Assembly: GCA_024280015.1 (NCBI GenBank)
Contig: JAJRQY010000041.1
Span: forward strand, 1 to 47,697
Direction: 5' to 3'
Length of the DNA stretch: 47,697 nt
From: Actinomycetes bacterium
Lineage (GTDB): Bacteria; Actinomycetota; Acidimicrobiia; Acidimicrobiales; SZUA-35
Each line of letters opens with the position of its first letter. Within the stretch, counting starts at the first letter, position 1. Made by a program: the position numbers and the translations under genes. The notes under the pieces are model-generated. The model saw only the letters and a list, made by a program, of their open reading frames with translations, made no database searches and was not told the DNA's origin. This document shows positions 13,661 through 38,051 of this stretch, one piece after another.

Positions 13661-13728
13661 CGGAAGTCGTGGAGTAAGGGCGGCCTTGGCTTGACCAGCG
13701 CGCTTATTCACCGGTACCTGTACATGAT

Positions 13729-13749
13729 ATCATTCGGCTACCGAACGAT
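13729..13749. promoter_or_regulatory. 21-bp palindrome upstream of the DyP peroxidase-marR operon
   Basis: ATCATTCGG (13729-13737), CTA, CCGAACGAT (13741-13749). The arms match at 8 of 9 positions. It ends 16 bases before the GTG start of the peroxidase gene. The length and symmetry suit a MarR-family dimer, and a MarR gene is the second gene of this transcript, so autoregulation through this site is the simplest reading (inference). Confidence 0.6.
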
Positions 13750-13765
13750 TCTGGAGTGTGTACAA

Positions 13766-15022
13766 GTGGTTGATCGTCGACAATTCCTGACCGGAAGTGC
13801 TGCGGGTCTAGCTGGAGTAGCTGGGGGTGTTCTGCTCGGAGGAGAGCTACTCGGCTCGGACAGTGAGTCAGCATCGAATGAGACTGCGATGTCAGGCCAG
13901 AGCATCCCGTTCCGCGGCAAGAGGCAAGCCGGAATCACCAATCCCGCTCCGACCTATGCCACCTTCGCCGCCTTTGACCTGACCAATCGCGAACAATCCG
14001 CCACTCGTGCACTGTTGGAATCCTGGACCAATGTGGCCGAACAGCTCTCGGTTGGGACAGCAATCCAAGGTGACTCAGGAGAGGCAACAGGGATGGGACC
14101 GTCAGGGCTGACAGTCACCTTTGGCTTCGGCGAAACCCTGTTTGATGATCAGTGTGCCCCGGCTTCGGCCCGGCCAGCAGGCTTGGTGACTCTCCCGGAG
14201 TTTCCTGGTGATCAGCTGGACCCAGCATGGGGAGGCGGGGACTTGCTGGTACAGGTGTGTGCCGGGGACCCCACCGTTGTATCCCATGCAGTGCGTCAGC
14301 TCCGCCGTGTTGGGCAGGGCACCGCAAGGCTCCGTTGGTCTCAAGCTGGCTTCTTGCCTCAAGTGCCGGGCGAGACACCTCGGAACCTCTTTGGTCAGGT
14401 GGACGGGACTGCAAACCCCGCTGCGGACTCGGCTGAGCTGGATGAACTGGTGTGGGTTACCGACGGCCCGGCCTGGATGACCGGTGGAACCTTCCTAGCG
14501 ACTCGACGAATTCGCATGATCATGACCGCTTGGGACCGGATGAGCCTTGACGTACAGGAGGCAACGGTTGGTCGTGATCGGGAAACCGGCGCCCCCCTTT
14601 CGGGAGGTGATGAGTTCACCGAACTCGACCTTGATGCCGTCAGCGATGGAGTTCCACTAATTGCCGCCGATGCTCATGTCCGTATCGCCAAGGCCAACGG
14701 GCCGGGAATGCTTCGCCGTGGTTATAGCTACGACAGCGGACCATTGGTAGTTGGAGCGGCAGCGGACGTTCCCGACGAGATGAATCATGATGAGCATGGG
14801 CAGCAAGATCATCGGCCGATGATGGCCGCCATGGATGACCATGACGCAGGCCTCTTCTTTGCTGCCTTCATGCGAGATCCGGCCGAGCAGTTCGTGCCAA
14901 TGCAGCAAGCCCTCAGTGCCACAGATGCGTTGAGTCACTTCTTGGCCTATACCTCTGCCGATCTGTGGGCAATCCCGGCGGGTGCAACCACGGGATCGAT
15001 CGCCGCTGATCTGTTCGCATGA
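13766..15022 (+). CDS. Tat-exported DyP-type heme peroxidase with His/Met-rich insertion
   Basis: GTG 13766 with GGAG 8 bases upstream gives a 418-residue protein beginning with a Tat signal (DRRQFLTGSAAG). DyP peroxidases use heme and H2O2 to oxidise bulky substrates. The family GxxDG motif is at 210-214 (FGQVDGTANP), the proximal heme His is H304 (AHVRIAKAN), and the distal Arg is R318 in LRRGYSYD. The ending DAGLFFAAFMRDPAEQFVP is also typical. Between GYSYD and GLFF lies an unusual insertion (about 334-360) rich in His, Met and Asp (NHDEHGQQDHRPMM), which could bind metal. The stop overlaps the MarR gene by 4 bases. An upstream in-frame TTG at 13691 is disfavoured because it would bury the Tat motif. 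Confidence 0.9.
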   Translation: MVDRRQFLTGSAAGLAGVAGGVLLGGELLGSDSESASNETAMSGQSIPFRGKRQAGITNPAPTYATFAAFDLTNREQSATRALLESWTNVAEQLSVGTAIQGDSGEATGMGPSGLTVTFGFGETLFDDQCAPASARPAGLVTLPEFPGDQLDPAWGGGDLLVQVCAGDPTVVSHAVRQLRRVGQGTARLRWSQAGFLPQVPGETPRNLFGQVDGTANPAADSAELDELVWVTDGPAWMTGGTFLATRRIRMIMTAWDRMSLDVQEATVGRDRETGAPLSGGDEFTELDLDAVSDGVPLIAADAHVRIAKANGPGMLRRGYSYDSGPLVVGAAADVPDEMNHDEHGQQDHRPMMAAMDDHDAGLFFAAFMRDPAEQFVPMQQALSATDALSHFLAYTSADLWAIPAGATTGSIAADLFA

Positions 15023-15513
15023 GCACCAGCACGGCCTGGGATTACGTCTCGCCCGTATTGGATGAGGTCGACCAACTTTCAGATGCCGTGGTGTCCTTTG
15101 TCCGCAATTTTGGTCTGTTGCAGTCTGATCAAACCCCATGCGGGCAGCCGTTGACCGTGTCTCAGGCTCATGCGTTGGGTGAGATAGAAGCTCGACCAGG
15201 GATCACCCAGCGAGACCTGGCACTAGCCTTAGGCCTGGCGAGGGCCACCGTGAGCGAACTGATTGGTGAGCTCATCGATCGAGACTGGGTTGAACAAGAG
15301 CCGTCTGTGACCGACCGTCGACAACGCTGTCTGACCGTCACTGTGCTTGGCCGCGAAGCGGCAGGGGATGTGGCTGAGGCCAGACGCACGCTTGTGCTCG
15401 AGATTGTCGAGTCTCTTACTCCTGATCAGCGCGCGCTCGTTGTCGCTGGGACTCTGCTGCTGGCCGATGGTGCCAAGCAGCGGCGAGACAAGATGAGTTC
15501 AACAGCCCCATAG
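15019..15513 (+). CDS. MarR-family transcriptional regulator
   Basis: The 164-residue protein has the MarR winged-helix layout: dimerising helices, then LTVSQAHALGEIEARPGITQ, recognition-helix region LALGLARATVSELIGELIDR, and wing SVTDRRQRCLTVTVLGRE with the D-x-R signature of MarR proteins. Two cysteines (C41 near QTPCGQ and C104 in RRQRCL) could sense oxidants, which would fit control of a peroxidase, but this is inference. ATG overlaps the peroxidase stop (ATGA), so the two are translationally coupled. The palindrome at 13729-13749 is its likely target. Confidence 0.88.
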   Translation: MSTSTAWDYVSPVLDEVDQLSDAVVSFVRNFGLLQSDQTPCGQPLTVSQAHALGEIEARPGITQRDLALALGLARATVSELIGELIDRDWVEQEPSVTDRRQRCLTVTVLGREAAGDVAEARRTLVLEIVESLTPDQRALVVAGTLLLADGAKQRRDKMSSTAP

Positions 15514-15576: not shown

Positions 15577-16824
15577 CTACGCCCCCGACCGCAGGGCGGC
15601 GATTGGCTCGGTTGCTGAGGCTTTCCAAGCCGGATAAGTACCAGCCAATAGGCCGATAACGGCCCCAAGAATTGGTGCCGCCAGTGGCAACCATGAATCC
15701 AATACCGGGCTCCAGTCCCGGGTTACCGACACTGCTACCACGGTCAGGATTCCCAGGCTGGTGCCAAGCAATCCGGCCAGGGCCCCAAGGGCCGCTGACT
15801 CAAACAGGAACTGGGTGGCAATATGGCGACGAGAGGCACCAAGCGCTCGACGTAAGCCAATTTCGCCGGTTCGCTCCATGACGGAAACGAGGGTGACGTT
15901 GGCGATACCAATGGCGCCGACCAACAAGGAGACGCCGCCGAGAATCAAGAATAGGGCATTCACATCGTTCTCTACCGATGACCGAACGCCTGCCGGCGAC
16001 GGAGGAAGAGAAACACGAAGCTGGTCTGGTTGGTTTGGAGCCAGGGCAATGGCTGCCTGGGTCCCGATCAGTTCGGCTGCCCCAACATCAACTTCGATAT
16101 GGACCTCGGATGGGGCGATTAGACCCATCCGTTCGGCCGCGTAGCCATTGGGCACAATGATGGCGTTCAACAGATCTGACTGTCGGGCGACGTCATGCAG
16201 GATGCCAATCACCGCCAACGGCTCTTCTCCAATGAATATGGCTGGGCTGTTATCAACCCTGGTCACATTCAGGCGCCGGGCAGCACCTGGCCCAAGGATG
16301 GCGACAGCATCACCGCGCTTGTCATGCCCTTCATCGAAGGTGCGGCCGGTAGCCATCTGCGCTCGGACGGCATCAAAGAGGCCGGGGCTAACGGCAATGA
16401 CGGGGATCTGGAACTCGGTTTGTCCGAGAGGATCAACAACAGGTACCGAGCGGGCCAAGGCTCCATTCACGTCAACATCGCTCTTGGTGCCGGCGGCGAC
16501 GACGCCATTGAGTCGTTCTAGGCGATCCCCAGAATCCCAGGGGATAACGTTGACCGTTCGGTTGCGGCTGTTGCCGCGATCCCTGGGCGGCTTGACCGTT
16601 ACTTGGGTTGCCTCAAGCTCATCAAAGCGGGAAACGATCTGGCTTCCTGCGGTCTTGGCCAAACCAAGAGTCGCGACCAGCGCAGCCACTCCGAGAACCG
16701 TGCCGAGGGCAGTCATGATGGTTCGGGCCGGGCGGGCGGTTAGCGCAATTGTTGCTTCATTAAGAAGGTCTCGGACCGACAGAACCGACCTTGGGATGTC
16801 TCGAACCCGAGCTGGTTGGTTCAT
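15577..16824 (-). CDS. MacB/FtsX-type ABC transporter permease
   Basis: The 415-residue permease has a first membrane helix at about 36-60 (IMTALGTVLGVAALVATLG), a large extracytoplasmic MacB core domain (about 65-280), and three C-terminal helices after ALFLILGGVSLLVGAIGI. It also has the family signature VMERTGEIGLRRALGASRRH in the loop between helices. Proteins of this type do not move substrates through the membrane as classical pumps; they transmit ATP-driven conformational work to periplasmic or extracellular partners. ATG 16824 overlaps the stop of the ATPase gene (ATGA). It is the last gene of a five-gene unit. Confidence 0.93.
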   Translation of the reverse strand: MNQPARVRDIPRSVLSVRDLLNEATIALTARPARTIMTALGTVLGVAALVATLGLAKTAGSQIVSRFDELEATQVTVKPPRDRGNSRNRTVNVIPWDSGDRLERLNGVVAAGTKSDVDVNGALARSVPVVDPLGQTEFQIPVIAVSPGLFDAVRAQMATGRTFDEGHDKRGDAVAILGPGAARRLNVTRVDNSPAIFIGEEPLAVIGILHDVARQSDLLNAIIVPNGYAAERMGLIAPSEVHIEVDVGAAELIGTQAAIALAPNQPDQLRVSLPPSPAGVRSSVENDVNALFLILGGVSLLVGAIGIANVTLVSVMERTGEIGLRRALGASRRHIATQFLFESAALGALAGLLGTSLGILTVVAVSVTRDWSPVLDSWLPLAAPILGAVIGLLAGTYPAWKASATEPIAALRSGA

Positions 16825-17597
16825 GATTCTTCCGCGGCCCAGATGCTGTCGGTCTGGCTTTCTCCGACCTCCTCGCCTTCCTCGGTGAGGACCCCATCTC
16901 GAATGTAGATCCGTCGCTCGGCGCGCTCGGACACGTCGTCATCATGGGTGATGACGGCCAAGGTGATGCCGAGTCGGTGCAGGTCATCGAACATGTCCAG
17001 TATCTGGGCTGAGGTCACTGAGTCGAGGTTGCCTGTTGGTTCGTCCGCCAACAGCAGGCTTGGTTCACCGACGAGGGCGCGGGCTACGGCGACTCGCTGT
17101 TTCTCGCCCCCAGACAAGGTGGTTGGGAACGCCTCGATCCGATGACCGAGACCAACCTGTACCAGCGCAGCAGTGGCTCGTTCCTTGCGTTTGGAAGAAT
17201 CGCCTGGTCGATAGACCTCGGCCAGCATGACGTTCTCCAGTGTGCTGCGGTGATTCAGAAGATGGAAGGACTGGAACACAAAGCCGATGCCAACCGAACG
17301 AACACCGGCTCGTTCTGGCTCGCTCAGACTGCCGGTGTCGATTCCGTCAAGGTAGTAGGTCCCGCTGGTTGGATAGTCCAACAAGCCCAAGAGGTGGAGC
17401 AGGGTGGACTTGCCAGAACCGGAGGGGCCAACGATGGCAACATAGTCGCCCTTGTCAATGCGAAGGTTGGCTGACTTCAATGCTTCTACCGGAGGTGTGC
17501 CGGGGAAGGAGCGAGTCACGTTTACCAGGTCGACAACTGCTGGTGTGGTTTCGGACAAGGGTGGCGGCAGATCGATAGCCGGAGGGACGAGGCTCAT
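16821..17597 (-). CDS. ABC transporter ATP-binding protein, LolD/MacB type
   Basis: The 258-residue ATPase partners the FtsX-like permease. Walker A is GPSGSGKSTLLHLLG, the Q-loop is VFQSFHLLNHRSTLENV, the signature is LSGGEKQRVAVARALV, Walker B is LLLADEPTGNLDS, and the H-switch is AVITHDDDV. The LLDYPTSGTYYLDG stretch after Walker A is typical of the LolD/MacB/SalX subfamily. Both ends overlap the neighbouring genes by 4 bases, giving fixed stoichiometry through translational coupling. Confidence 0.96.
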   Translation of the reverse strand: MSLVPPAIDLPPPLSETTPAVVDLVNVTRSFPGTPPVEALKSANLRIDKGDYVAIVGPSGSGKSTLLHLLGLLDYPTSGTYYLDGIDTGSLSEPERAGVRSVGIGFVFQSFHLLNHRSTLENVMLAEVYRPGDSSKRKERATAALVQVGLGHRIEAFPTTLSGGEKQRVAVARALVGEPSLLLADEPTGNLDSVTSAQILDMFDDLHRLGITLAVITHDDDVSERAERRIYIRDGVLTEEGEEVGESQTDSIWAAEES

Positions 17598-19450
17598 CCG
17601 TCGGTCTCTTCTGCGGGAGCTTCGGTGCTGTCTGTTGAATCAGTGCCTGATTCGGTATCCGCGTCAGTGTCGGAGCCTTCGTCCGATGAATCAGTGCTGT
17701 CTGAATCTGTGCTGTCTGGGTCAGTGCTGTCTGAATCAGTGACGCTGAAGTTGGAGTCGCGGCCGACAACAACTCGGTCACCGGCCGCAAGCGTGCCTTC
17801 GAGGGCAGTGATCTCCACGAAGCCTTGCGAGCTCAGGCCAGTCTTAACCTTGATGATGTCGGTCTGACCTGGAGATCGTTCGATCTCGACCCTGGCGGTG
17901 CCATCTGCGCCAGCCGATAGGGCGGCCAACGGCACTACCAAGACATCGCCACTGGTGGATTCGATCGGAATGGTGACCCGATAGTTCTGGTCGAAGCCTT
18001 CTTCGGGAAGGGGGTCAACCGGCTCCAGTCGGATGGCGTAACGGTCGGCCGACGCGTTGGGCCCACCCGGTGTTGTGGCAACGAAGGTGACGGTGGCTGG
18101 CACGGAAATACCCAGATCGTCATTGGCCATGACAGCCTCGGCCCCTTCCTTGATGAGGGGGCGGTCTGTGGCGGACACGGCAGATCGAATGACAACACCC
18201 GAACCAGTGACCCGCATGACGGACCCTTGGGGCGTGTCGCCAATGGCCACATTCACTCGTTGGATTTCGCGGGGGAGTGAGGGAAGGAAGAGGAGCTCAG
18301 AAGCGGGGAACTCGATCCCGACCTCAGCATCAGCCTTGGCCAGGTCAGATTGTGCTTCGGCCAGAGATTTTTGGGCATCGGATAGTTGTGATCGGGCATC
18401 GCCAGCTCCGCTCTGGGCCAGTGTTTCCTTGCGGCTGGCGATCTGGATGGCCAGATCGGTGTTGGCATCGGCCCACATCCGGTCTTGTTCCAAAGAGACC
18501 GCGGCTTGGGCCGCAGTGGCCTCATCCAACCCGGCTTGGGCGGACGCCTCATTGGCTACGGCATCAGACTTAGCTGATCGCAAGGTGTCCAGTTCTGCTG
18601 GGGTTGGGGCGACACCGGTGTCGGGGTGGGTGCCAGCTTCCGCCTGGTTGAGACGTTCGGTAGCCAGAGCCACCGCAGCCCATGCGTTGTCATGAGCGGA
18701 CTTGGCTGTTGCGGTGACACCGGCGGCTTCGGCTTTCGCTCCGTTGGCGATTGTGGTTGCGTCATCCAATGCGTTTTGTGCGGTTCGGACTGCTTGATCC
18801 AACTGAAGTTTGGTCGACTCAGATACTCCGGACTGGTTGACTTGTTGTTGAGCCGAGCGAACTGCTGATCGTGCTCCGTCAACTCGTTGTCGTGCCGACT
18901 CAACTTGAGCCAGTTCTTCGGTGGTTGGTTCGTCCGGGGAGTACCCGGCCTTGCGGTAGAGCTCGGCTACCGCGGCTTCGGTATTTGCGTCATAGACCTT
19001 GTCAACCGTGCCGGGATTGAAACCCTGGCGAGCCAGCGCCTCCTCCAGTTGGAGAACATCTGGGCCTTCCAAACCTGGGGTGAGGGATCGGAATATGGGC
19101 AGCTGGCCTTCGAGCACGATGAGGGGGCGTCCGGCGACCTCGATAACGACGTCGCCTTCCTCCAGCTTCTGGTTGGCCTCCTTGGTGAGCCGGGTAATGA
19201 TGGATGCACCGCTGGCTGAGCCAGAAACACTGATGTCAGTGGCATCATCAAATTCGGCTTGGCCACGAATGACGACGTTGGATGACAAGGCCCGTTGTTC
19301 GACCGGGACCGTGATGAGTGAGGGTTCGGGGGCTTCGGTTTGGGCGGCGATCTCTGCTGGTGACTTGATTTGTTGTCCAGCAACCCAACCAATGCCTGCG
19401 GAGAGTACGGCCACCGCCGCCACGATGGCCAGTAGTACTCGTCGATTCAT
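17594..19450 (-). CDS. HlyD/MacA-like adaptor with peptidoglycan-binding domain and acidic tail
   Basis: This 618-residue protein starts with a signal anchor (about 4-22) and a short lipoyl/barrel stretch. A PG_binding_1 domain follows at about 120-170 (LEGPDVLQLEEALARQGF, DANTEAAVAELYRKAGY). Then comes a long Ala/Gln-rich coiled coil (about 175-390) and the returning barrel domains. The last 50 residues are a low-complexity Ser/Asp/Thr/Glu tail (DSDSTDPDSTDSDSTDSSDE). In monoderms such adaptors cannot meet an outer-membrane TolC; the peptidoglycan-binding domain instead suggests anchoring in the wall while linking lipoproteins to the MacB-like permease (inference). It overlaps its neighbours by 4 bases on both sides. 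Confidence 0.9.
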   Translation of the reverse strand: MNRRVLLAIVAAVAVLSAGIGWVAGQQIKSPAEIAAQTEAPEPSLITVPVEQRALSSNVVIRGQAEFDDATDISVSGSASGASIITRLTKEANQKLEEGDVVIEVAGRPLIVLEGQLPIFRSLTPGLEGPDVLQLEEALARQGFNPGTVDKVYDANTEAAVAELYRKAGYSPDEPTTEELAQVESARQRVDGARSAVRSAQQQVNQSGVSESTKLQLDQAVRTAQNALDDATTIANGAKAEAAGVTATAKSAHDNAWAAVALATERLNQAEAGTHPDTGVAPTPAELDTLRSAKSDAVANEASAQAGLDEATAAQAAVSLEQDRMWADANTDLAIQIASRKETLAQSGAGDARSQLSDAQKSLAEAQSDLAKADAEVGIEFPASELLFLPSLPREIQRVNVAIGDTPQGSVMRVTGSGVVIRSAVSATDRPLIKEGAEAVMANDDLGISVPATVTFVATTPGGPNASADRYAIRLEPVDPLPEEGFDQNYRVTIPIESTSGDVLVVPLAALSAGADGTARVEIERSPGQTDIIKVKTGLSSQGFVEITALEGTLAAGDRVVVGRDSNFSVTDSDSTDPDSTDSDSTDSSDEGSDTDADTESGTDSTDSTEAPAEETDG

Positions 19451-20595
19451 CCTGATGTTCCCTTGAATTGGGCTAGTCGGTCCTGGTTAGCATCCAAGAA
19501 CTCTTGTTCCATATCGATCCGGATCTTGCTCAGTTCGGGATTCGACGAGTCATCCAGTGAGTTGCCAGAGCACTCGTAGACGGCCAAGGCCAAACCAAGC
19601 TCGTACTCCTGGGCTGTTGCCAGCTTGGTCAGGTCGTCTTCACTGAGCTTGTTTTGTTCGAAGAATTGCTGCTCGATCTGTTCATCGGTGAGATCGCCAT
19701 CGGACCCCGAGCTGTCATCGAAGAGGACACCACCACCACCGCCATCGCCGATGTCGCTGATCCGCCCCTGGAGGTCGTTGAACGCGTCCTCCTGGTTGGT
19801 GTAGTCATATCCCTTGTCGCTCACACAGGTCTTGATCTTGGAGCGAGCCTCGGCCACCCGAGGATCTGCCTCGAAACGTTGCTCAAGCTCGTCCATCTCG
19901 TCGGCGAACTCCTCGAAGAAGGCATTGATGTTGCCGAACTGGTCCCCAAAGGAGCTGCTGAAACAGCCGGTTGGCTGGTAGTCGGGCCCGTAGTACTCAT
20001 TCAGGATGGCCTCGTTCTCTTCCTCGCTGAGACTGGCGTCATATTCGGGTCCGTCATCGGCACCATAAAGGGCGGCATAGTAGGCCTCTTGCTCGCCGGG
20101 CGAAAGCGAATCGACATAGACCTGATTGGGGTCGGTGCTGTCTGGTGCTCCGAGAAAGTCACCAAAGTTATGGCCAACCAGATCGGGCCCGACCTGTTCT
20201 TGAGAGAAAGCTTGAGTGGACACCCCAAACCCGTACTTGTCAATCCAGGCCTTGGAGCCGTATTCCAAGCCATCTTCGCCTCCGGTGAAGGCTTGGAAGG
20301 TTGAGTCGTCAGTCGGTGTGTATTCAAACCCTTCGGCCCGCATACAGGCGGTGATCTTTTCCTGAGCGTCGCGCTCAGCCTGAGCTTGCTTGGCCTTGGC
20401 TTCGTCGCTGCCGAAATTGGTGTCAAAGCCGAGGAAATCGAACAGGGGCGACTCGTAGTCAGCCGCAGCCTCGTTGTCGCTGCTGCTCTGTGCTCCATCA
20501 GATGACGGATCACCGGACGACGAACTGCTGCAGGCGCCACCGATAAGGACGAGGCTGGTCAGTAAACTCAGAGCGAGTTTCGGCTTGTTGGACAT
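19447..20595 (-). CDS. Lipoprotein, paralogue B of a tandem pair
   Basis: ATG 20595 follows GGGAGAAGATCC, a strong ribosome site. The 382-residue protein has a lipoprotein signal ending at C22 (LIGGAC), then a Ser/Asp linker and an acidic globular part. It shares with the next gene the blocks ESPLFDFLGF, CMRAEGFEYTP, FGVSTQAFSQEQVGPDLVGH, PTGCFSS, CVSDKGYDYTN and LATAQEYELGLALAVYEC. The C-x3-x-G-F/Y-E/D-Y-T motif occurs twice within the protein, suggesting an internal repeat. No known family is recognised. The stop overlaps the adaptor gene by 4 bases, tying it to the exporter. A further in-frame start at 20670 is less likely because it would displace the lipobox. Confidence 0.88.
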   Translation of the reverse strand: MSNKPKLALSLLTSLVLIGGACSSSSSGDPSSDGAQSSSDNEAAADYESPLFDFLGFDTNFGSDEAKAKQAQAERDAQEKITACMRAEGFEYTPTDDSTFQAFTGGEDGLEYGSKAWIDKYGFGVSTQAFSQEQVGPDLVGHNFGDFLGAPDSTDPNQVYVDSLSPGEQEAYYAALYGADDGPEYDASLSEEENEAILNEYYGPDYQPTGCFSSSFGDQFGNINAFFEEFADEMDELEQRFEADPRVAEARSKIKTCVSDKGYDYTNQEDAFNDLQGRISDIGDGGGGGVLFDDSSGSDGDLTDEQIEQQFFEQNKLSEDDLTKLATAQEYELGLALAVYECSGNSLDDSSNPELSKIRIDMEQEFLDANQDRLAQFKGTSG

Positions 20596-20705
20596 GGATC
20601 TTCTCCCAGATCTTGAACCCGACATTTCAGGCACTTCATCAAGTTTGTCGAATGAACCTAAGAGACTCATGAGAGGTCTTGAGAGCGTTCTTATGAACGG
20701 TCTGG

Positions 20706-21854
20706 TCAGCCGCCCATCGTTCCCTTGAACCGCGCCAGTTCGTCAGCATTAGCATCCAAGAAGTCCTGCTCCAATTCGACTCGGATTTTCACCAGAACTG
20801 GATCGACGTAGGACGAGAGGGCACCATTGGAGCAGTCCATGACCGCGGCTGCGAGGCCGAGCTCGTACTCCTGGACCACTGCCAGCTTGACCTTGTCATC
20901 TTCGCTGAGGGTATTCATACCAGCGAAGATGGCATCGATCTCTTCGTCGGTGAGAGTTTCGGGGTCAACACCATTGAACGGATCCCCCATTGGGCCGTTG
21001 CCAAGGTCACCCATTCGCTCCTCGAGGTCCTGATAGACCGATTCTTCGTCGGTGTAGTCAAAGCCTTTCTCTGACACACAGCTGGAGACTTCGGCGCGCC
21101 GGGCGGCGACTCGTGGATCTGACTCGAAGCGGTCTTCCATTTCTTGCAACAGGTCACCGAATTCCTTGTCGAACTCTTGGTAGGAGTCTTCGCCACTGGA
21201 TTCTTGGTAGGCAGTACTCATGCAGCCGGTCGGTTCGTAGTTCTCGTCGTAGTACTCCTCCATGACCGCATTGTTCTCCTCGTCACTGAGGCTGTCATCC
21301 CACTCGGGGCCGTCCTCCTTGCCATAGAGGGTTTCGTAGTAGACCTCTTGTTCTGCCTCAGGCAGAGATTGCGCGTACTCTTCGTTGGGGTCGACGAAGG
21401 CCTGCTCCGCCTCGTCGCCGCCATAGTTGTGGCCGACCAGATCTGGTCCGACATCCTCCTGAGAGAACCGCTGGGTCGAGATACCAAATCCGTATTTCTC
21501 ACCCCAGGCGCTGGTACCCCACTCGATGCCTTCTTCTTCACCGGTGAAGTTCTCGAATTGGCTCGAGTCGATGGGGGTGTATTCGAAGCCTTCGGCCTTC
21601 ATGCAGACCGCAATAGCCTCCTGAGCTTTTCGTTCGATCTCTTGGTACTTCGCCTGTTGGTCTTCATTGTTGAAGTCGGTGGTCCAGCCAAGGAAGTCGC
21701 CCAGAGGCGACTCAAATTCGGCCGCCGCGGCCTCAACCGATTCTTCGGAGCCGGCACCGCAAGCGCTCGCTCCGAGGGCCAAGGCCACAATGATGCTCGT
21801 TGCCACTCGTGAGCGCGTTGAAACTGGACGTGAGAATACAGATGTTCTCTGCAT
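20706..21854 (-). CDS. Lipoprotein, paralogue A of a tandem pair
   Basis: This is the first gene of the exporter unit, with AAGGAAG before ATG 21854. It has 382 residues, exactly the length of its downstream paralogue, with lipid Cys C32 (LGASAC). The pair are similar along their whole length, differing mainly in the linkers: compare GFGISTQRFSQEDVGPDLVGH here with the matching block in paralogue B. Four cysteines outside the signal are conserved between them (in CMKAEGFEY, PTGCMS, CVSEKGFDY and VMDCSNG), compatible with two disulphides. The function is unknown; the position suggests a substrate or partner of the MacAB-like machine. 110 bases separate it from paralogue B. Confidence 0.88.
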   Translation of the reverse strand: MQRTSVFSRPVSTRSRVATSIIVALALGASACGAGSEESVEAAAAEFESPLGDFLGWTTDFNNEDQQAKYQEIERKAQEAIAVCMKAEGFEYTPIDSSQFENFTGEEEGIEWGTSAWGEKYGFGISTQRFSQEDVGPDLVGHNYGGDEAEQAFVDPNEEYAQSLPEAEQEVYYETLYGKEDGPEWDDSLSDEENNAVMEEYYDENYEPTGCMSTAYQESSGEDSYQEFDKEFGDLLQEMEDRFESDPRVAARRAEVSSCVSEKGFDYTDEESVYQDLEERMGDLGNGPMGDPFNGVDPETLTDEEIDAIFAGMNTLSEDDKVKLAVVQEYELGLAAAVMDCSNGALSSYVDPVLVKIRVELEQDFLDANADELARFKGTMGG

Positions 21855-34035: not shown

Positions 34036-35085
34036 GTGGCTAGTATCAACCGCCATGATGACTCCCGCGATCAGAATGGTTTTGGCTTGAGTAAGGACAA
34101 ACCAGTTCTCGAAGTAATTGGCCTGACTACCCAATTCAGAACCCAAGATGGCATCGTCCACGCAGTCAATGGGGTGAGCTTTGAACTCCGGGAGGGCGAA
34201 TTTCTCGGTGTTGTTGGTGAGAGCGGTTCGGGCAAGAGCGTCTCAATGATGTCCTTGTTGAAACTGATCCCAATGCCACCGGGCGAAATTGTTGCTGGCG
34301 AGGTCAAGTTCGGAGGTCAAGACCTCCTCCGGATCAGCCCAAGCGAACTTCGTCATGTTCGTGGCGGTGAAATCGGTTTCATCTTCCAAGATCCGATGAC
34401 CTCACTCAATCCGGTCATCAGGATTGGGAAACAGATCACCGAGTCGCTCGACCTGCATACCGACTTGTCGAAGAAGGAGTCCGAAGCCAGGGCGCTTGAG
34501 CTGATGGAGCTTGTCGGTCTGCCTGACGCCGCCCAACGGTTGAAGTCCTATCCTCACGAGCTTTCCGGAGGTATGCGCCAACGAATCATGATCGCCATGG
34601 CCCTGGCTTGCTCGCCGGGAATGCTCATCGCTGATGAGCCAACCACGGCCCTTGATGTGACTATCCAGGCCCAGATCATCGAGCTGGTGAAGGATCTTCG
34701 TCAAAAGCTCGGCACTGCCCTTATCTGGATCACCCATGATCTCGGGGTCGTTGCCGGCTTAGCCGACCGAGTGCTAGTTATGTATGGCGGCCAGATTGTG
34801 GAGGAGTCTCCGGTGAAGGAGCTTTACGCCAATCCGCAGCACCCCTACACCCAAGGGTTGCTGGAGTCGCTGCCCCGAGCCGATCAGAAGGGCGAGGAGC
34901 TCAACAGTATCGAGGGTCAGCCTCCGAGCATGTACAGCGCCCCAACCTCGTGCAGCTTCGCCCCACGCTGTCCCTTTGTTTTTGATCGCTGTCGTGAAGA
35001 ACTTCCAGTTCTGAGGCTGGTCGCGCCTGATCGCAAGACTGCCTGCTTCTATGACATGAACAATGGGGAGCCCTTCCGTGACTGA
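34036..35085 (+). CDS. Opp/Dpp peptide ABC importer ATPase (OppD-like)
   Basis: This 349-residue ATPase is one of two that power a peptide/nickel-type importer. Motifs: Walker A GESGSGKS (61-68), Q-loop [12 protein letters not shown], signature [16 protein letters not shown], Walker [14 protein letters not shown] and H-switch WITHDLGVV. The C-terminal oligopeptide extension ([14 protein letters not shown]) with its Cys-rich pattern is typical of OppD/DppD and often binds an Fe-S cluster. GTG 34036 is the best in-frame start, although no ribosome site is visible; TTG 34087 is an alternative. It heads the five-gene importer operon. Confidence 0.94.
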
Positions 35086-36091
35086 TACCGCAACCGAGCT
35101 CGAATCGCTGGATACCGACCGCGAGGTACTCCTCAGCGTCAAGGGGCTAAAGAAACACTTCCCCATCATGAAGGGCGTCTTTCGTAAACAGGTCGGTGCC
35201 GTACGCGCGGTCGACGGTGTTGACTTTGTCATCTACAAGGGAGAGACCCTTGGCCTGGTCGGTGAAAGCGGATCGGGTAAGTCCACAACTGGGCGAGTCA
35301 TCCTCCAGCTTGACAACGCAACGGAAGGATCAGTCACCTTCGATGGAATTGAGCTGACACAAATCTCCTCCAAGGACATGCGGAAACTTCGGCGGCGCAT
35401 GCAGATGATCTTTCAGGATCCGCATGCCTGCTTGAATCCTCGAATGACCGTGGCCTCAATCATCGGTGAACCCTTGGTTGAGAACTCTGACATGTCCAAG
35501 GCCGAGCGTCGCTCCAGGATCGAAGAGCTTCTGCAGTCAGTTGGTCTTGATCCGACCCACGCCAATCGTTACCCTCATGAGTTCTCTGGCGGTCAGCGAC
35601 AACGAATCGGCATCGCCCGAGCTATTGCCCTGCATCCTGAGTTCATTGTTTGTGACGAACCTATTGCTGCGTTGGATGTCTCGATCCAGGCCCAAGTCGT
35701 CAACCTCCTAAAGAAGTTGCAGAAGGAACTGGACCTCACCTACTTCTTCATCTCCCATGACCTCAGCATGGTTCGCCATATCGCCGACCGCGTCGCCGTC
35801 ATGTACCTGGGACACATCGTCGAGCTCGCGCCGGTAGATGTGGTCTATGACGATCCAAAGCACCCCTATACCCAAGCGCTAAATTCAGCGGTTCCGGTGC
35901 CCGATCCCCTCATAGAGGAGACCAGGCAACGGGTGATCTTGGAGGGCGACGTTCCCAGCCCAGCCAACCCACCGCCAGGATGCGTCTTCAGTACCCGCTG
36001 TCCAATTGCCACCGAACGTTGTTCAAGTGAGGTTCCGGAGTGGCGCAGTCTAGGGAATGAGCATTGGGTGGCTTGCCACTTCGCTGAGTGA
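35078..36091 (+). CDS. Opp/Dpp peptide ABC importer ATPase (OppF-like)
   Basis: GTG 35078 is preferred because GGGGAG lies 8 bases upstream and the start overlaps the previous gene's stop region; ATG 35063 would add five residues. The 337-residue ATPase has KHFPIMKGVFRKQVG (typical OppF opening), Walker [55 protein letters not shown] and FFISHDLSMVRH. The C-terminal FSTRCPIATERC is the matching oligopeptide extension. It pairs with the OppD-like ATPase as a heterodimer on the cytoplasmic face. Confidence 0.95.
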   Translation: MTDTATELESLDTDREVLLSVKGLKKHFPIMKGVFRKQVGAVRAVDGVDFVIYKGETLGLVGESGSGKSTTGRVILQLDNATEGSVTFDGIELTQISSKDMRKLRRRMQMIFQDPHACLNPRMTVASIIGEPLVENSDMSKAERRSRIEELLQSVGLDPTHANRYPHEFSGGQRQRIGIARAIALHPEFIVCDEPIAALDVSIQAQVVNLLKKLQKELDLTYFFISHDLSMVRHIADRVAVMYLGHIVELAPVDVVYDDPKHPYTQALNSAVPVPDPLIEETRQRVILEGDVPSPANPPPGCVFSTRCPIATERCSSEVPEWRSLGNEHWVACHFAE

Positions 36092-36242: not shown

Positions 36243-38051
36243 ATGAAGAGACTCATTGCGCTGCTAGCAGCGCTTGCGATGGTGGCAGCCGCTTGTGGCG
36301 GCTCCAGCAGCGACAGCGCCGGTGGTGGTGGTACCGACGAAGAAGCCGGGACCACAACCGCCCCTACCGTTGAGGAACAGACGCCTCCTCCAACCGAGGA
36401 AGCACCTACTGAGGCCGAAGCCGGTTCCGGTGGAAACCTTGTTCTTCTCCAGTGGCAGGCGCCTTCGCAGGCCAATGCCCTGCTTTCCAGCGGAACCAAG
36501 GACATCTTGGCCGCATCGATCGTGATCGAGCCTCTGGCCGAGATCGCTCCTGATGGAACCTTTATTCCCACGCTGGCGACCGAGATTCCAACCGCCAGCA
36601 ATGGTGGAATCTCCGATGACCTGACCCAGATCACCTGGACCTTGCGCGATGACATCTTGTGGTCTGACGGCACGCCGTTCACCGCGGCTGACGTGGTCTT
36701 CACCTTCGACTACTGCGAAGACGAAGCAACTGGTTGTTCGACCGAGGCCTTCGCTGCTGTTGATACGGTTGTCGCTGATGATGACCACACGGTCACCATC
36801 ACCTTCGATGAGGCCAAGCCATACCCGTTTGAGCCATTCGTCGGTGCGATCAGCCCCGTCATCCAGAAGGCTCAATTCGAGAGCTGCGTTGGCGAAGCCG
36901 CCAAGGCATGTTCGGATGAGAACTTCATGCCGGTTGGAACTGGTCCCTACGTAGTGACCGAGCTTCGTCCAGAGGACACCGTCCTCTATGAGATGAACTC
37001 GAACTACCGTGGCATCGCCGAAGGCAAGCCGTTCTTTGGCACCGTTGAGATCAAGGGCGGCGGCGACGCCGAAGCCTCAGCTCGTTCGGTCCTCGAAGTT
37101 GGCGAAGCTGACTACGCCTGGAACCTTCAGGTTGCTCCCGAAATCATTGCTCCCATGGTGGACGCAGGATTTGGTCGTACCGCATCGGCATTCGCTGCCA
37201 ATGTTGAGCACATCAACCTGAACCAGACTGATCCAAACGCTGCTACTCCTTCGGAGGGCACCCCGCACCCATTGTTCGTCGATAACCCCGACCTGCATCG
37301 TGCACTTTCCATCGCCATCAACCGCGATGAGCTGGTAGCCGTTGGCTACGGCCCGGCCGGTAACCCGACCTGTAACATGTGGCCGGTAGGCGCCGAGAAC
37401 TCCACCAACAACGACTGGTGCCTGACCCAGGACCTCGACGGTGCTAACGCACTGCTTGATGGCCTTGGCTACATGGACACTGACGGTGACGGAGTACGTG
37501 AGGCCGACGGCTACGGACCACTGGAATTTGACTATGTCACTTCCACCAACGCCGTGCGTCAGAGCAACCAGGAACTGATCGCGTCCTACTGGGCCGAGAT
37601 TGGTGTTGTTGCCAACATGCAGAACGAAGACGCCAGCCTGTTCTTCGATGGCACCTGTGCCAGCGATGCTTGCATCTGGAAGTTCTTCACTCCAATGGAG
37701 ATGTTCACCAACGGATCCTCCGGCCCAGACGCCGGTAGCTATCTCAATGGTTGGATCAGCTCCAAGATCCCGACCTCGGCCACTGCCTGGGGCGGCGACA
37801 ACATCTCTCGTCTCAATAGCGCCGAGTACGATGCTCTTGAGGCTGAGTTGTCCAGCACCGCTTTGGACGATCCAAAGCGCACTGACCTGATCATTCAAAT
37901 GAATGACATCTTGTCAACCAGCGCCGTCATCCCGTTGATCCACCGTGCCAATGCGTCGGCGTTCGCCAACAGCATTGGTGGTACCGGTGAGCTCAACGGT
38001 TGGGACAGCGAGTACTACAACATCGAAGAATGGTTCCGCATCGCTGAGTAA
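36243..38051 (+). CDS. Peptide-binding lipoprotein (SBP family 5) of the importer
   Basis: GGGAGAG lies at ideal distance before ATG 36243. The 602-residue lipoprotein has a signal ending at C18 (MVAAACGG), a long Thr/Glu/Pro linker, and the SBP_bac_5 fold: SIVIEPLAEIAPDGTFIPTLA, WTLRDDILWSDGTPFTAADVVFTF (read in parts), the FMPVGTGPYVV stretch and HRALSIAINRDELVA. This is the extracellular receptor that captures oligopeptides and delivers them to the permease pair. Its length and conserved blocks are normal. It has its own upstream palindrome and a hairpin after it, suggesting separate and higher expression. Confidence 0.95.
   Translation: MKRLIALLAALAMVAAACGGSSSDSAGGGGTDEEAGTTTAPTVEEQTPPPTEEAPTEAEAGSGGNLVLLQWQAPSQANALLSSGTKDILAASIVIEPLAEIAPDGTFIPTLATEIPTASNGGISDDLTQITWTLRDDILWSDGTPFTAADVVFTFDYCEDEATGCSTEAFAAVDTVVADDDHTVTITFDEAKPYPFEPFVGAISPVIQKAQFESCVGEAAKACSDENFMPVGTGPYVVTELRPEDTVLYEMNSNYRGIAEGKPFFGTVEIKGGGDAEASARSVLEVGEADYAWNLQVAPEIIAPMVDAGFGRTASAFAANVEHINLNQTDPNAATPSEGTPHPLFVDNPDLHRALSIAINRDELVAVGYGPAGNPTCNMWPVGAENSTNNDWCLTQDLDGANALLDGLGYMDTDGDGVREADGYGPLEFDYVTSTNAVRQSNQELIASYWAEIGVVANMQNEDASLFFDGTCASDACIWKFFTPMEMFTNGSSGPDAGSYLNGWISSKIPTSATAWGGDNISRLNSAEYDALEAELSSTALDDPKRTDLIIQMNDILSTSAVIPLIHRANASAFANSIGGTGELNGWDSEYYNIEEWFRIAE

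What the first reader, a model, noticed from the sequence alone, without database searches (positions are those of the whole stretch)
15577..21854. Twin 382-residue lipoproteins coupled to a MacAB-like machine with a wall-binding adaptor
Two tandem paralogues of identical length, each with a lipobox, four conserved Cys and an internal C-x4-GF/Y-E/D-Y-T repeat, precede an adaptor with a PG_binding_1 domain and a MacB-type ATPase/permease. Overlapping stops and starts link the second lipoprotein to the rest. In a cell without a TolC-type outer membrane this could be a mechanotransmission complex acting on lipoproteins, the wall or secreted peptides. The lipoprotein family is not one I recognise.
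Basis: partly seen in the sequence, partly recalled or inferred. Interest (0 to 1): 0.63.

Follow-up and report, generated by a model that had tools for sequence, protein, structure and literature searches.

The report
Four-cysteine lipoprotein of MacB-type transporters
Two sister surface lipoproteins in this bacterium belong to an unnamed protein family that travels with a wall-anchored transport machine, and elsewhere often with small secreted proteins, so they are probably the part of the machine that catches what it pushes out.

Summary
Confirmed exactly: five minus-strand genes encode two tandem 382-residue lipoproteins (49% identical), a PG_binding_1 adaptor, an ATPase and a MacB/FtsX permease; the last four overlap by 4 bp. 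The lipoproteins match nothing in Pfam, NCBIfam or the PDB.

Lipoprotein then adaptor is conserved in 24 of 26 relative genomes examined; only this genus has the pair. The signature, a lipobox plus four cysteines, also marks the shorter lipoproteins that start this genome's four other such operons, and lies upstream of 15 of 18 adaptors read in other genomes. I take it as a standing fourth subunit of many actinobacterial MacB-type machines.

Elsewhere, long-form members often follow a small secreted protein gene: 63 of 157 against 79 of 736 control genes. 22 of these 63 proteins match Inhibitor_I36. In eight loci, secreted protein, lipoprotein and machine lie in a row. None lies beside the window operon.

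Best reading: the lipoprotein catches small secreted proteins and the machine drives them outward, most likely for self-protection. The partnership is well supported; the mechanism is inferred.

The parts
20706..21854 (-). LP1: four-cysteine lipoprotein, 382 aa; lipobox Cys32, conserved Cys84, 211, 259, 341
19447..20595 (-). LP2: tandem paralogue of LP1, 382 aa (alternative start at 20670 gives 407 aa); stop overlaps adaptor start by 4 bp
17594..19450 (-). Adaptor (MacA/HlyD-like by position and alignment), 618 aa, hydrophobic N-terminus
18935..19066 (-). PG_binding_1 domain inside the adaptor (residues 129-172)
   Evidence: E=1.8e-7, 31.7 bits, cut-off 23
18323..18922 (-). Predicted long helical hairpin of the adaptor (helices 177-204, 211-271, 284-345, 350-376)
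   Evidence: AlphaFold2, block means pLDDT 85-93 over residues 241-310, whole model poor (mean 47.5); the stretch is absent from the four short adaptors of the same genome
16821..17597 (-). ABC ATPase, MacB/LolD class, 258 aa
15577..16824 (-). MacB-type permease, 415 aa, MacB_PCD and FtsX domains

Best explanation
The operon encodes a wall-anchored MacAB-like machine with a dedicated lipoprotein subunit. Shown: the four-cysteine lipoprotein is a recurrent genetic partner of PG_binding-adaptor MacB machines in Actinomycetota, and its long-form relatives are also genetic partners of small secreted proteins. Inferred: (1) the lipoprotein sits on the outer face of the cytoplasmic membrane, its two repeats probably held by disulfides between the four cysteines; (2) it binds a small exported protein or peptide there; (3) it hands the ligand to the adaptor, which the PG_binding domain ties to the wall; (4) ATP-driven movement of the MacB-type permease drives the ligand outward. 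The most likely purpose is self-protection: lipoprotein plus secreted protein is a toxin-and-immunity-like pair, lipoprotein plus machine is a stand-alone defence like YknXYZ, and the three together are the full set. The two tandem lipoproteins of the window would be two receptors of different specificity on one machine.
For: Partnership with the machine: 24 of 26 relative genomes examined have lipoprotein then adaptor; 21 show the four-gene row and the other 3 run off the contig. All 5 adaptor-MacB operons found in this genome start with a lipobox-plus-four-cysteine protein. In 12 other genomes 15 of 18 adaptors with upstream room have one directly upstream, each with a MacB-type permease downstream. 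Adjacency of an adaptor changes 17 times on the lipoprotein tree, at least 12 forced by supported branches, against a mean of 38 in shuffles, so it is clustered yet recurrent. Partnership with secreted proteins: 63 of 157 lipoproteins against 79 of 736 control genes and 35 of 361 exported controls, Fisher p=1e-16 for the first; Streptomycetaceae-type loci 52 of 82 against 46 of 454, p=3e-24. At E<=0.01, 22 of 63 secreted proteins match Inhibitor_I36 and 2 of 63 Crystall_2, against at most 1 of 77 control ORFs for I36 (it is not among the 25 listed of 60 families). Lipoprotein and secreted-protein similarities co-vary (Spearman 0.465 over 63 pairs, 0 of 999 permutations as high). Eight loci carry secreted-LP-ADP-ATP-PRM. 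Precedent: YknXYZ and AS-48EFGH protect against the cell's own secreted toxin or bacteriocin, and YknX binds peptidoglycan (PMC5985334, section 13).
Against: By the strict test 0 of 23 Acidimicrobiales lipoprotein-adaptor pairs have a small secreted gene upstream, and none was seen upstream of LP1. No secreted protein of the set was shown to be toxic; I36 proteins are named as protease inhibitors. Binding, handover and direction of movement are untested. The control used heuristic ORF and signal calls; many control 'small ORFs' are pieces of other genes, so its base rate is rough. Co-variation of similarities can partly reflect shared ancestry of genomes. Long and short lipoproteins match only over 26-30 columns in profile comparison (probability 25%, E=8e-4; 73%, E=3e-5).
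Confidence: 0.42

Rival explanations
1. Secretion or release chaperone: the lipoprotein helps the small secreted protein fold (disulfides) and passes it to the machine for passage through the thick wall. Purpose is delivery, not protection.
For: Secreted gene and lipoprotein are co-directional and adjacent, 52 of 82 in streptomycete-type loci; more than one kind of neighbour goes with one lipoprotein family (I36; phospholipase A2 beside two lipobox-less relatives), which is odder for immunity proteins; four cysteines after the lipobox in 130 of 136 members.
Against: Most lipoprotein-secreted pairs have no adaptor directly downstream: 43 of 48 in the Streptomycetaceae sample. Machine operons such as the window's have no such gene upstream.
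Confidence: 0.25
2. Envelope sensor or wall regulator: the lipoprotein senses antibiotics or wall stress and the MacB-type permease transmits movement to wall enzymes, as FtsEX does, or detoxifies cell-wall antibiotics.
For: The three Streptomyces plasmid copies of the row sit beside a two-component system or a SigE-type sigma factor gene; two ABC transporters of S. coelicolor (SCO3089-3090, SCO3110-3111) are induced by wall antibiotics and contribute to bacitracin resistance (PMC3123327 section 19), though I did not test that these are the same type.
Against: Does not explain the secreted-protein linkage. The window operon holds no wall-enzyme gene; whether one recurs in relatives was not tested.
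Confidence: 0.18
3. Lipoprotein trafficking: the lipoproteins are the substrates, extracted from the membrane by a LolCDE-like machine.
For: Best NCBIfam match of the ATPase is LolD (210.2 bits); the lipoprotein is in the same operon.
Against: LolD and lolCE matches are below curated cut-offs (210.2 v 307.75 and 28.5 v 362.45); LolCDE works without an adaptor, and one is present here; 122 of 166 lipoproteins have no adaptor directly downstream.
Confidence: 0.1

Closest known systems
YknWXYZ (Bacillus), self-protection against the SDP toxin
   Same: Separate adaptor, ATPase and MacB-type permease in a cell without outer membrane; adaptor binds peptidoglycan (PMC5985334 section 13)
   Different: Fourth component YknW is a co-transcribed membrane protein, not described as a lipoprotein; the window adaptor carries a PG_binding_1 domain, and that YknX lacks one is recalled, not checked
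AS-48EFGH (Enterococcus)
   Same: MacB-type transporter with cognate adaptor protecting against the cell's own bacteriocin
   Different: AS-48E is predicted to have four membrane helices; the section read names no lipoprotein there
LanI lipoprotein plus LanFEG transporter (lantibiotic immunity; recalled, not tested)
   Same: Lipoprotein and ABC transporter together guard against a secreted antimicrobial
   Different: LanFEG is recalled as a different transporter type without adaptor; no family at all matched LP1 or LP2 in Pfam or NCBIfam
MacAB-TolC
   Same: Adaptor, MacB_PCD and FtsX domains, same ATPase class
   Different: ATPase and permease are separate proteins; no TolC partner in the operon; NCBIfam MacB model far below cut-off (202.3 v 966 bits)
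LolCDE
   Same: MacB-type architecture, lipoprotein involved
   Different: LolD and lolCE models below cut-off; an adaptor is present here

Membership tests
MacB-type ABC machine with adaptor | Permease with MacB_PCD and FtsX domains | tested here: met
   62.2 and 68.4 bits, both above gathering score
MacB-type ABC machine with adaptor | Dedicated ABC ATPase of the MacB/LolD class | tested here: met
   ABC_tran 106.5 bits; best matches LolD, MacB, FtsE, all below equivalog cut-offs
MacB-type ABC machine with adaptor | MacA-like adaptor with helical hairpin | tested here: inconclusive
   No adaptor family of Pfam reached its cut-off, only PG_binding_1; hairpin helices predicted, whole model poor (mean pLDDT 47.5); CzcB/NccB adaptor model E=6.9e-5, below cut-off
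MacAB-TolC | Outer-membrane TolC duct | not tested
   No search for TolC was made; absence of an outer membrane in this group is recalled
YknWXYZ | Co-transcribed YknW membrane protein | tested here: inconclusive
   The ORF list around the operon shows lipoproteins upstream of the adaptor, an SDR-like gene upstream of LP1 and a MarR gene beyond the permease; no YknW profile was run
LolCDE | LolD and LolC/E equivalog scores | tested here: not met
   210.2 v 307.75 and 28.5 v 362.45 bits
Lactococcin 972 type bacteriocin exporter | L_ocin_972_ABC ATPase | tested here: not met
   182.9 v 254.85 bits
Any named lipoprotein family | Match in Pfam, NCBIfam or PDB | tested here: not met
   LP1 and LP2; LP1 and 36-member profile against the PDB; 36 long members against Pfam: nine families, one weak member each, best E 0.0039; 16 short members against Pfam and NCBIfam: none

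The most novel reading that the evidence does not exclude
Actinomycetota carry a large unnamed system built on one four-cysteine lipoprotein superfamily: dispersed cassettes of a small secreted protein (often of the I36/crystallin type, perhaps sometimes phospholipase A2) with its own lipoprotein, served by shared or cassette-borne wall-anchored MacB machines. The lipoprotein is the receptor that decides what the machine expels, in the way solute-binding proteins decide what importers take up, and the cassettes are a widespread class of secreted toxins with lipoprotein immunity.
Probability: 0.28. Interest if true: 0.82.

Novelty: new variant of a known kind. Interest (0 to 1): 0.64.

Why it matters
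The 2018 review I read asks what MacA-like adaptors do in cells without an outer membrane and leaves it open (PMC5985334 section 13). A recurrent lipoprotein subunit with a simple signature gives that question a handle: it turns up in several actinobacterial groups, it points to candidate substrates, and in several genomes substrate, receptor and machine lie in one gene row that can be cloned and tested as a unit. If the secreted partners are toxins, streptomycetes hold many uncatalogued pairs.

Tried and rejected
I do not use the fold. The adaptor model is used only for its hairpin helices.

Family identification failed in Pfam, NCBIfam and the PDB. A lactococcin 972 link, suggested by the ATPase, was dropped (below cut-off; none of the small secreted neighbours scanned matched it). 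A viral scan found no relative; a genome-contig scan found one.

Results against my reading: 0 of 23 Acidimicrobiales lipoprotein-adaptor pairs have a small secreted gene upstream; one of the 9 positive among 20 pairs outside that group, L140, I regard as a spurious ORF; of the six machine-free lipoproteins of this genome only L053 passes the strict test; L265 has an adaptor without lipoprotein, and L259 and L266 each hold a second adaptor without its own. The cysteine-count control found only 10 other lipoprotein-like ORFs (0-3 cysteines), too few to weigh. The lipoprotein tree is FastTree only, with many long branches.

Rows and choices: L064 (same DNA as L049) and L221 (10 bases) were left out from then on; the window itself is not among the 166 lipoproteins; 9 of 166 with under 700 bases upstream were dropped; 6 of 166 short or weak rows were dropped from the tree. 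One search saw 27 adaptor matches in 25 loci (recounted). I set aside L264, L269, L270 and L273 by eye as having too little sequence upstream, leaving 23: 4 of this genome (all with lipoprotein), L136 (lipoprotein present but on the other strand, counted as a miss) and 18 from 12 other genomes (15 with). The stretches were chosen by me from the stronger matches, and the five loci L056-L059 and L136 are also rows of the search profile. In L058 the cysteine count starts from its second lipobox-like site.

Literature: ten searches gave no paper on this lipoprotein family by title or start of abstract; five of them returned no paper at all, so the term sets were narrow. Read: passages and section 13 of PMC5985334; passages and section 19 of PMC3123327. 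This covers only the held open-access library.
Full report
WHAT IS THERE. The window is contig C71 of a 4.8-Mb, 175-contig genome; the one named relative found is an uncultured Acidimicrobiales bacterium. LP1 and LP2 are 49% identical over 385 alignment columns. The adaptor has a PG_binding_1 domain, and the permease MacB_PCD and FtsX domains, all above Pfam cut-offs. LP2, adaptor, ATPase and permease overlap by 4 bp at each joint; LP1 lies 110 bp upstream of LP2.

THE LIPOPROTEIN FAMILY. Neither lipoprotein matches Pfam or NCBIfam, and the 36-member profile finds nothing convincing in the PDB. In 36 family members the lipobox cysteine, four more cysteines and several glycines are invariant. 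A set of 29 more distant members, from this genome and from other groups including Streptomyces, keeps the same four cysteines and three glycines. Of 136 members with a recognised lipobox, 130 have exactly four further cysteines.

COUPLING TO THE MACHINE IN RELATIVES. LP1 finds relatives in 31 of 61 genomes searched, this one included. I fetched neighbourhoods for 26 of the 30 other genomes with a match; 24 have lipoprotein followed by adaptor, 21 with the whole four-gene row and 3 cut by the contig end. G027 and G052 gave only lipoproteins without adaptor. G011, G024, G035 and G036 were not examined. The tandem pair occurs in this genome and in G001 of the same genus only. Best matches (LP1 to the first copy 51%, LP2 to the second 54%; crosswise 48% and 50%) weakly suggest that the duplication precedes the split.

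A GENERAL FOURTH SUBUNIT. This genome has five adaptor matches at E<=1e-10. All five operons begin with a lipobox protein with four further cysteines, the other four being shorter. I took the adaptor profile to 119 genomes of the phylum (matches in 64, many of them covering only a small part of the profile), fetched 20 stretches around stronger matches and read what lies upstream. Of 18 adaptors with enough sequence, in 12 other genomes, 15 have such a lipoprotein directly upstream, and all 15 have a MacB-type permease downstream. The three misses are L265 and the second adaptors of L259 and L266. Counting this genome's other four and L136, where the lipoprotein is on the opposite strand, the figure is 19 of 23. 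Sixteen of the short lipoproteins aligned together keep five cysteines and one glycine invariant. Profile comparison with the long family is suggestive, not strong, so common descent of long and short forms is likely but not proven. The short forms match nothing in Pfam or NCBIfam either. In three of the five Streptomyces plasmid stretches read, the row is annotated 'hypothetical protein, peptidoglycan-binding protein, ABC transporter ATP-binding protein, ABC transporter permease'; in the other two the relative stands without the machine.

SMALL SECRETED PARTNERS. Six further long lipoproteins of this genome lie away from the machine. Three of them (L053, L054, L055) have a small secreted protein gene upstream, with a second lipoprotein gene between in L054; only L053 passes the stricter test used next. 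In a wider sample, 63 of 157 lipoproteins have a small secreted ORF directly upstream, against 79 of 736 other coding ORFs and 35 of 361 exported ones in the same loci. In streptomycete-type loci the figures are 52 of 82 against 46 of 454. The test is heuristic. Many control positives are pieces of other genes, so the contrast is probably understated. Of the 63 secreted proteins, at E<=0.01, 22 match Inhibitor_I36 and 2 match Crystall_2; their joint profile finds protein S and other beta/gamma crystallins in the PDB weakly (E=0.0041 for protein S, beside unrelated hits of similar strength that are probably signal-peptide matches). Lipoprotein and partner similarities co-vary (Spearman 0.465 over 63 pairs and 0.342 over 49 streptomycete pairs, 0 of 999 permutations as high in each), which shared ancestry of the genomes can partly explain. 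Two lipobox-less relatives (L132, L133) are followed by a prokaryotic phospholipase A2 gene.

ALL TOGETHER. In L131, L164, L166, L176, L184, L192, L205 and L206 the row is secreted protein, lipoprotein, adaptor, ATPase, permease (in L184 the adaptor starts 658 bp after the lipoprotein). The secreted proteins of L176 and L205 pass the I36 cut-off; L206 is just under it, and L164 has no match. On a tree of 160 lipoproteins, presence of an adjacent adaptor changes 17 times, at least 12 forced by supported branches, against a mean of 38 in shuffles. The association is therefore clustered but has been made or lost many times.

MECHANISM. A protein family that recurs beside a wall-anchored outward-facing ABC machine, and beside small secreted proteins, is most simply a receptor that links the two. 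Self-protection fits all three arrangements and has precedent in YknXYZ and AS-48EFGH (PMC5985334 section 13). Export through the wall is the main rival and shares the same steps with another purpose. None of the physical steps was tested here. In the window itself the ligand is unknown.

LIMITS. No reliable lipoprotein structure. Adaptor model usable only for its hairpin. The sample was drawn by similarity to this family. Phylum searches scored at most four or six candidates per genome, so presence counts (22 and 42 of 396 genomes at E<=1e-4, the weaker matches covering only part of the profile) are rough. 40 of 61 Streptomycetaceae genomes have a match.

Noticed in passing
window 13691-15022 (+) and 15019-15513 (+): A protein that looks like an exported Dyp-type peroxidase (recalled, not searched), overlapping by 4 bp with a MarR-type regulator that converges on the permease gene.
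   Followed up: no
window 34036-36088 (+) and 36243-38048 (+): Two ABC ATPase-like genes in tandem followed by a large ORF; my guess is an oligopeptide importer with its binding protein, not searched. The ORF's weak match to the lipoprotein profile (E=7e-4) is probably chance.
   Followed up: no
L132:1008-2869 and L133:5253-7126: A four-cysteine relative without recognised lipobox, with an extra C-terminal part, followed at once by a prokaryotic phospholipase A2 gene.
   Followed up: partly
L050:2-340 and L062:1363-2274: Proteins with a 'YPxVADP' stretch upstream of machine-free lipoproteins; no Pfam match. In L050 another gene, transposase-like by eye, lies between. A possible further kind of partner.
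   Followed up: partly
L123, L129, L209, L210 (genome G310): One 2.6-Mb genome of the same order has runs of these lipoproteins (five in the 14.7-kb contig L123), several of them with their own small secreted gene.
   Followed up: partly
L267 and L214 (genome G098): In one genome a lipoprotein-adaptor-ATPase/permease row is followed by three more tandem lipoproteins of the family.
   Followed up: no
window 17594-19450 against L056-L059: The window adaptor carries about 200 residues of predicted helical hairpin that the four other adaptors of the same genome lack; in this genome the long lipoproteins go with the long adaptor and the short ones with the short adaptors.
   Followed up: partly
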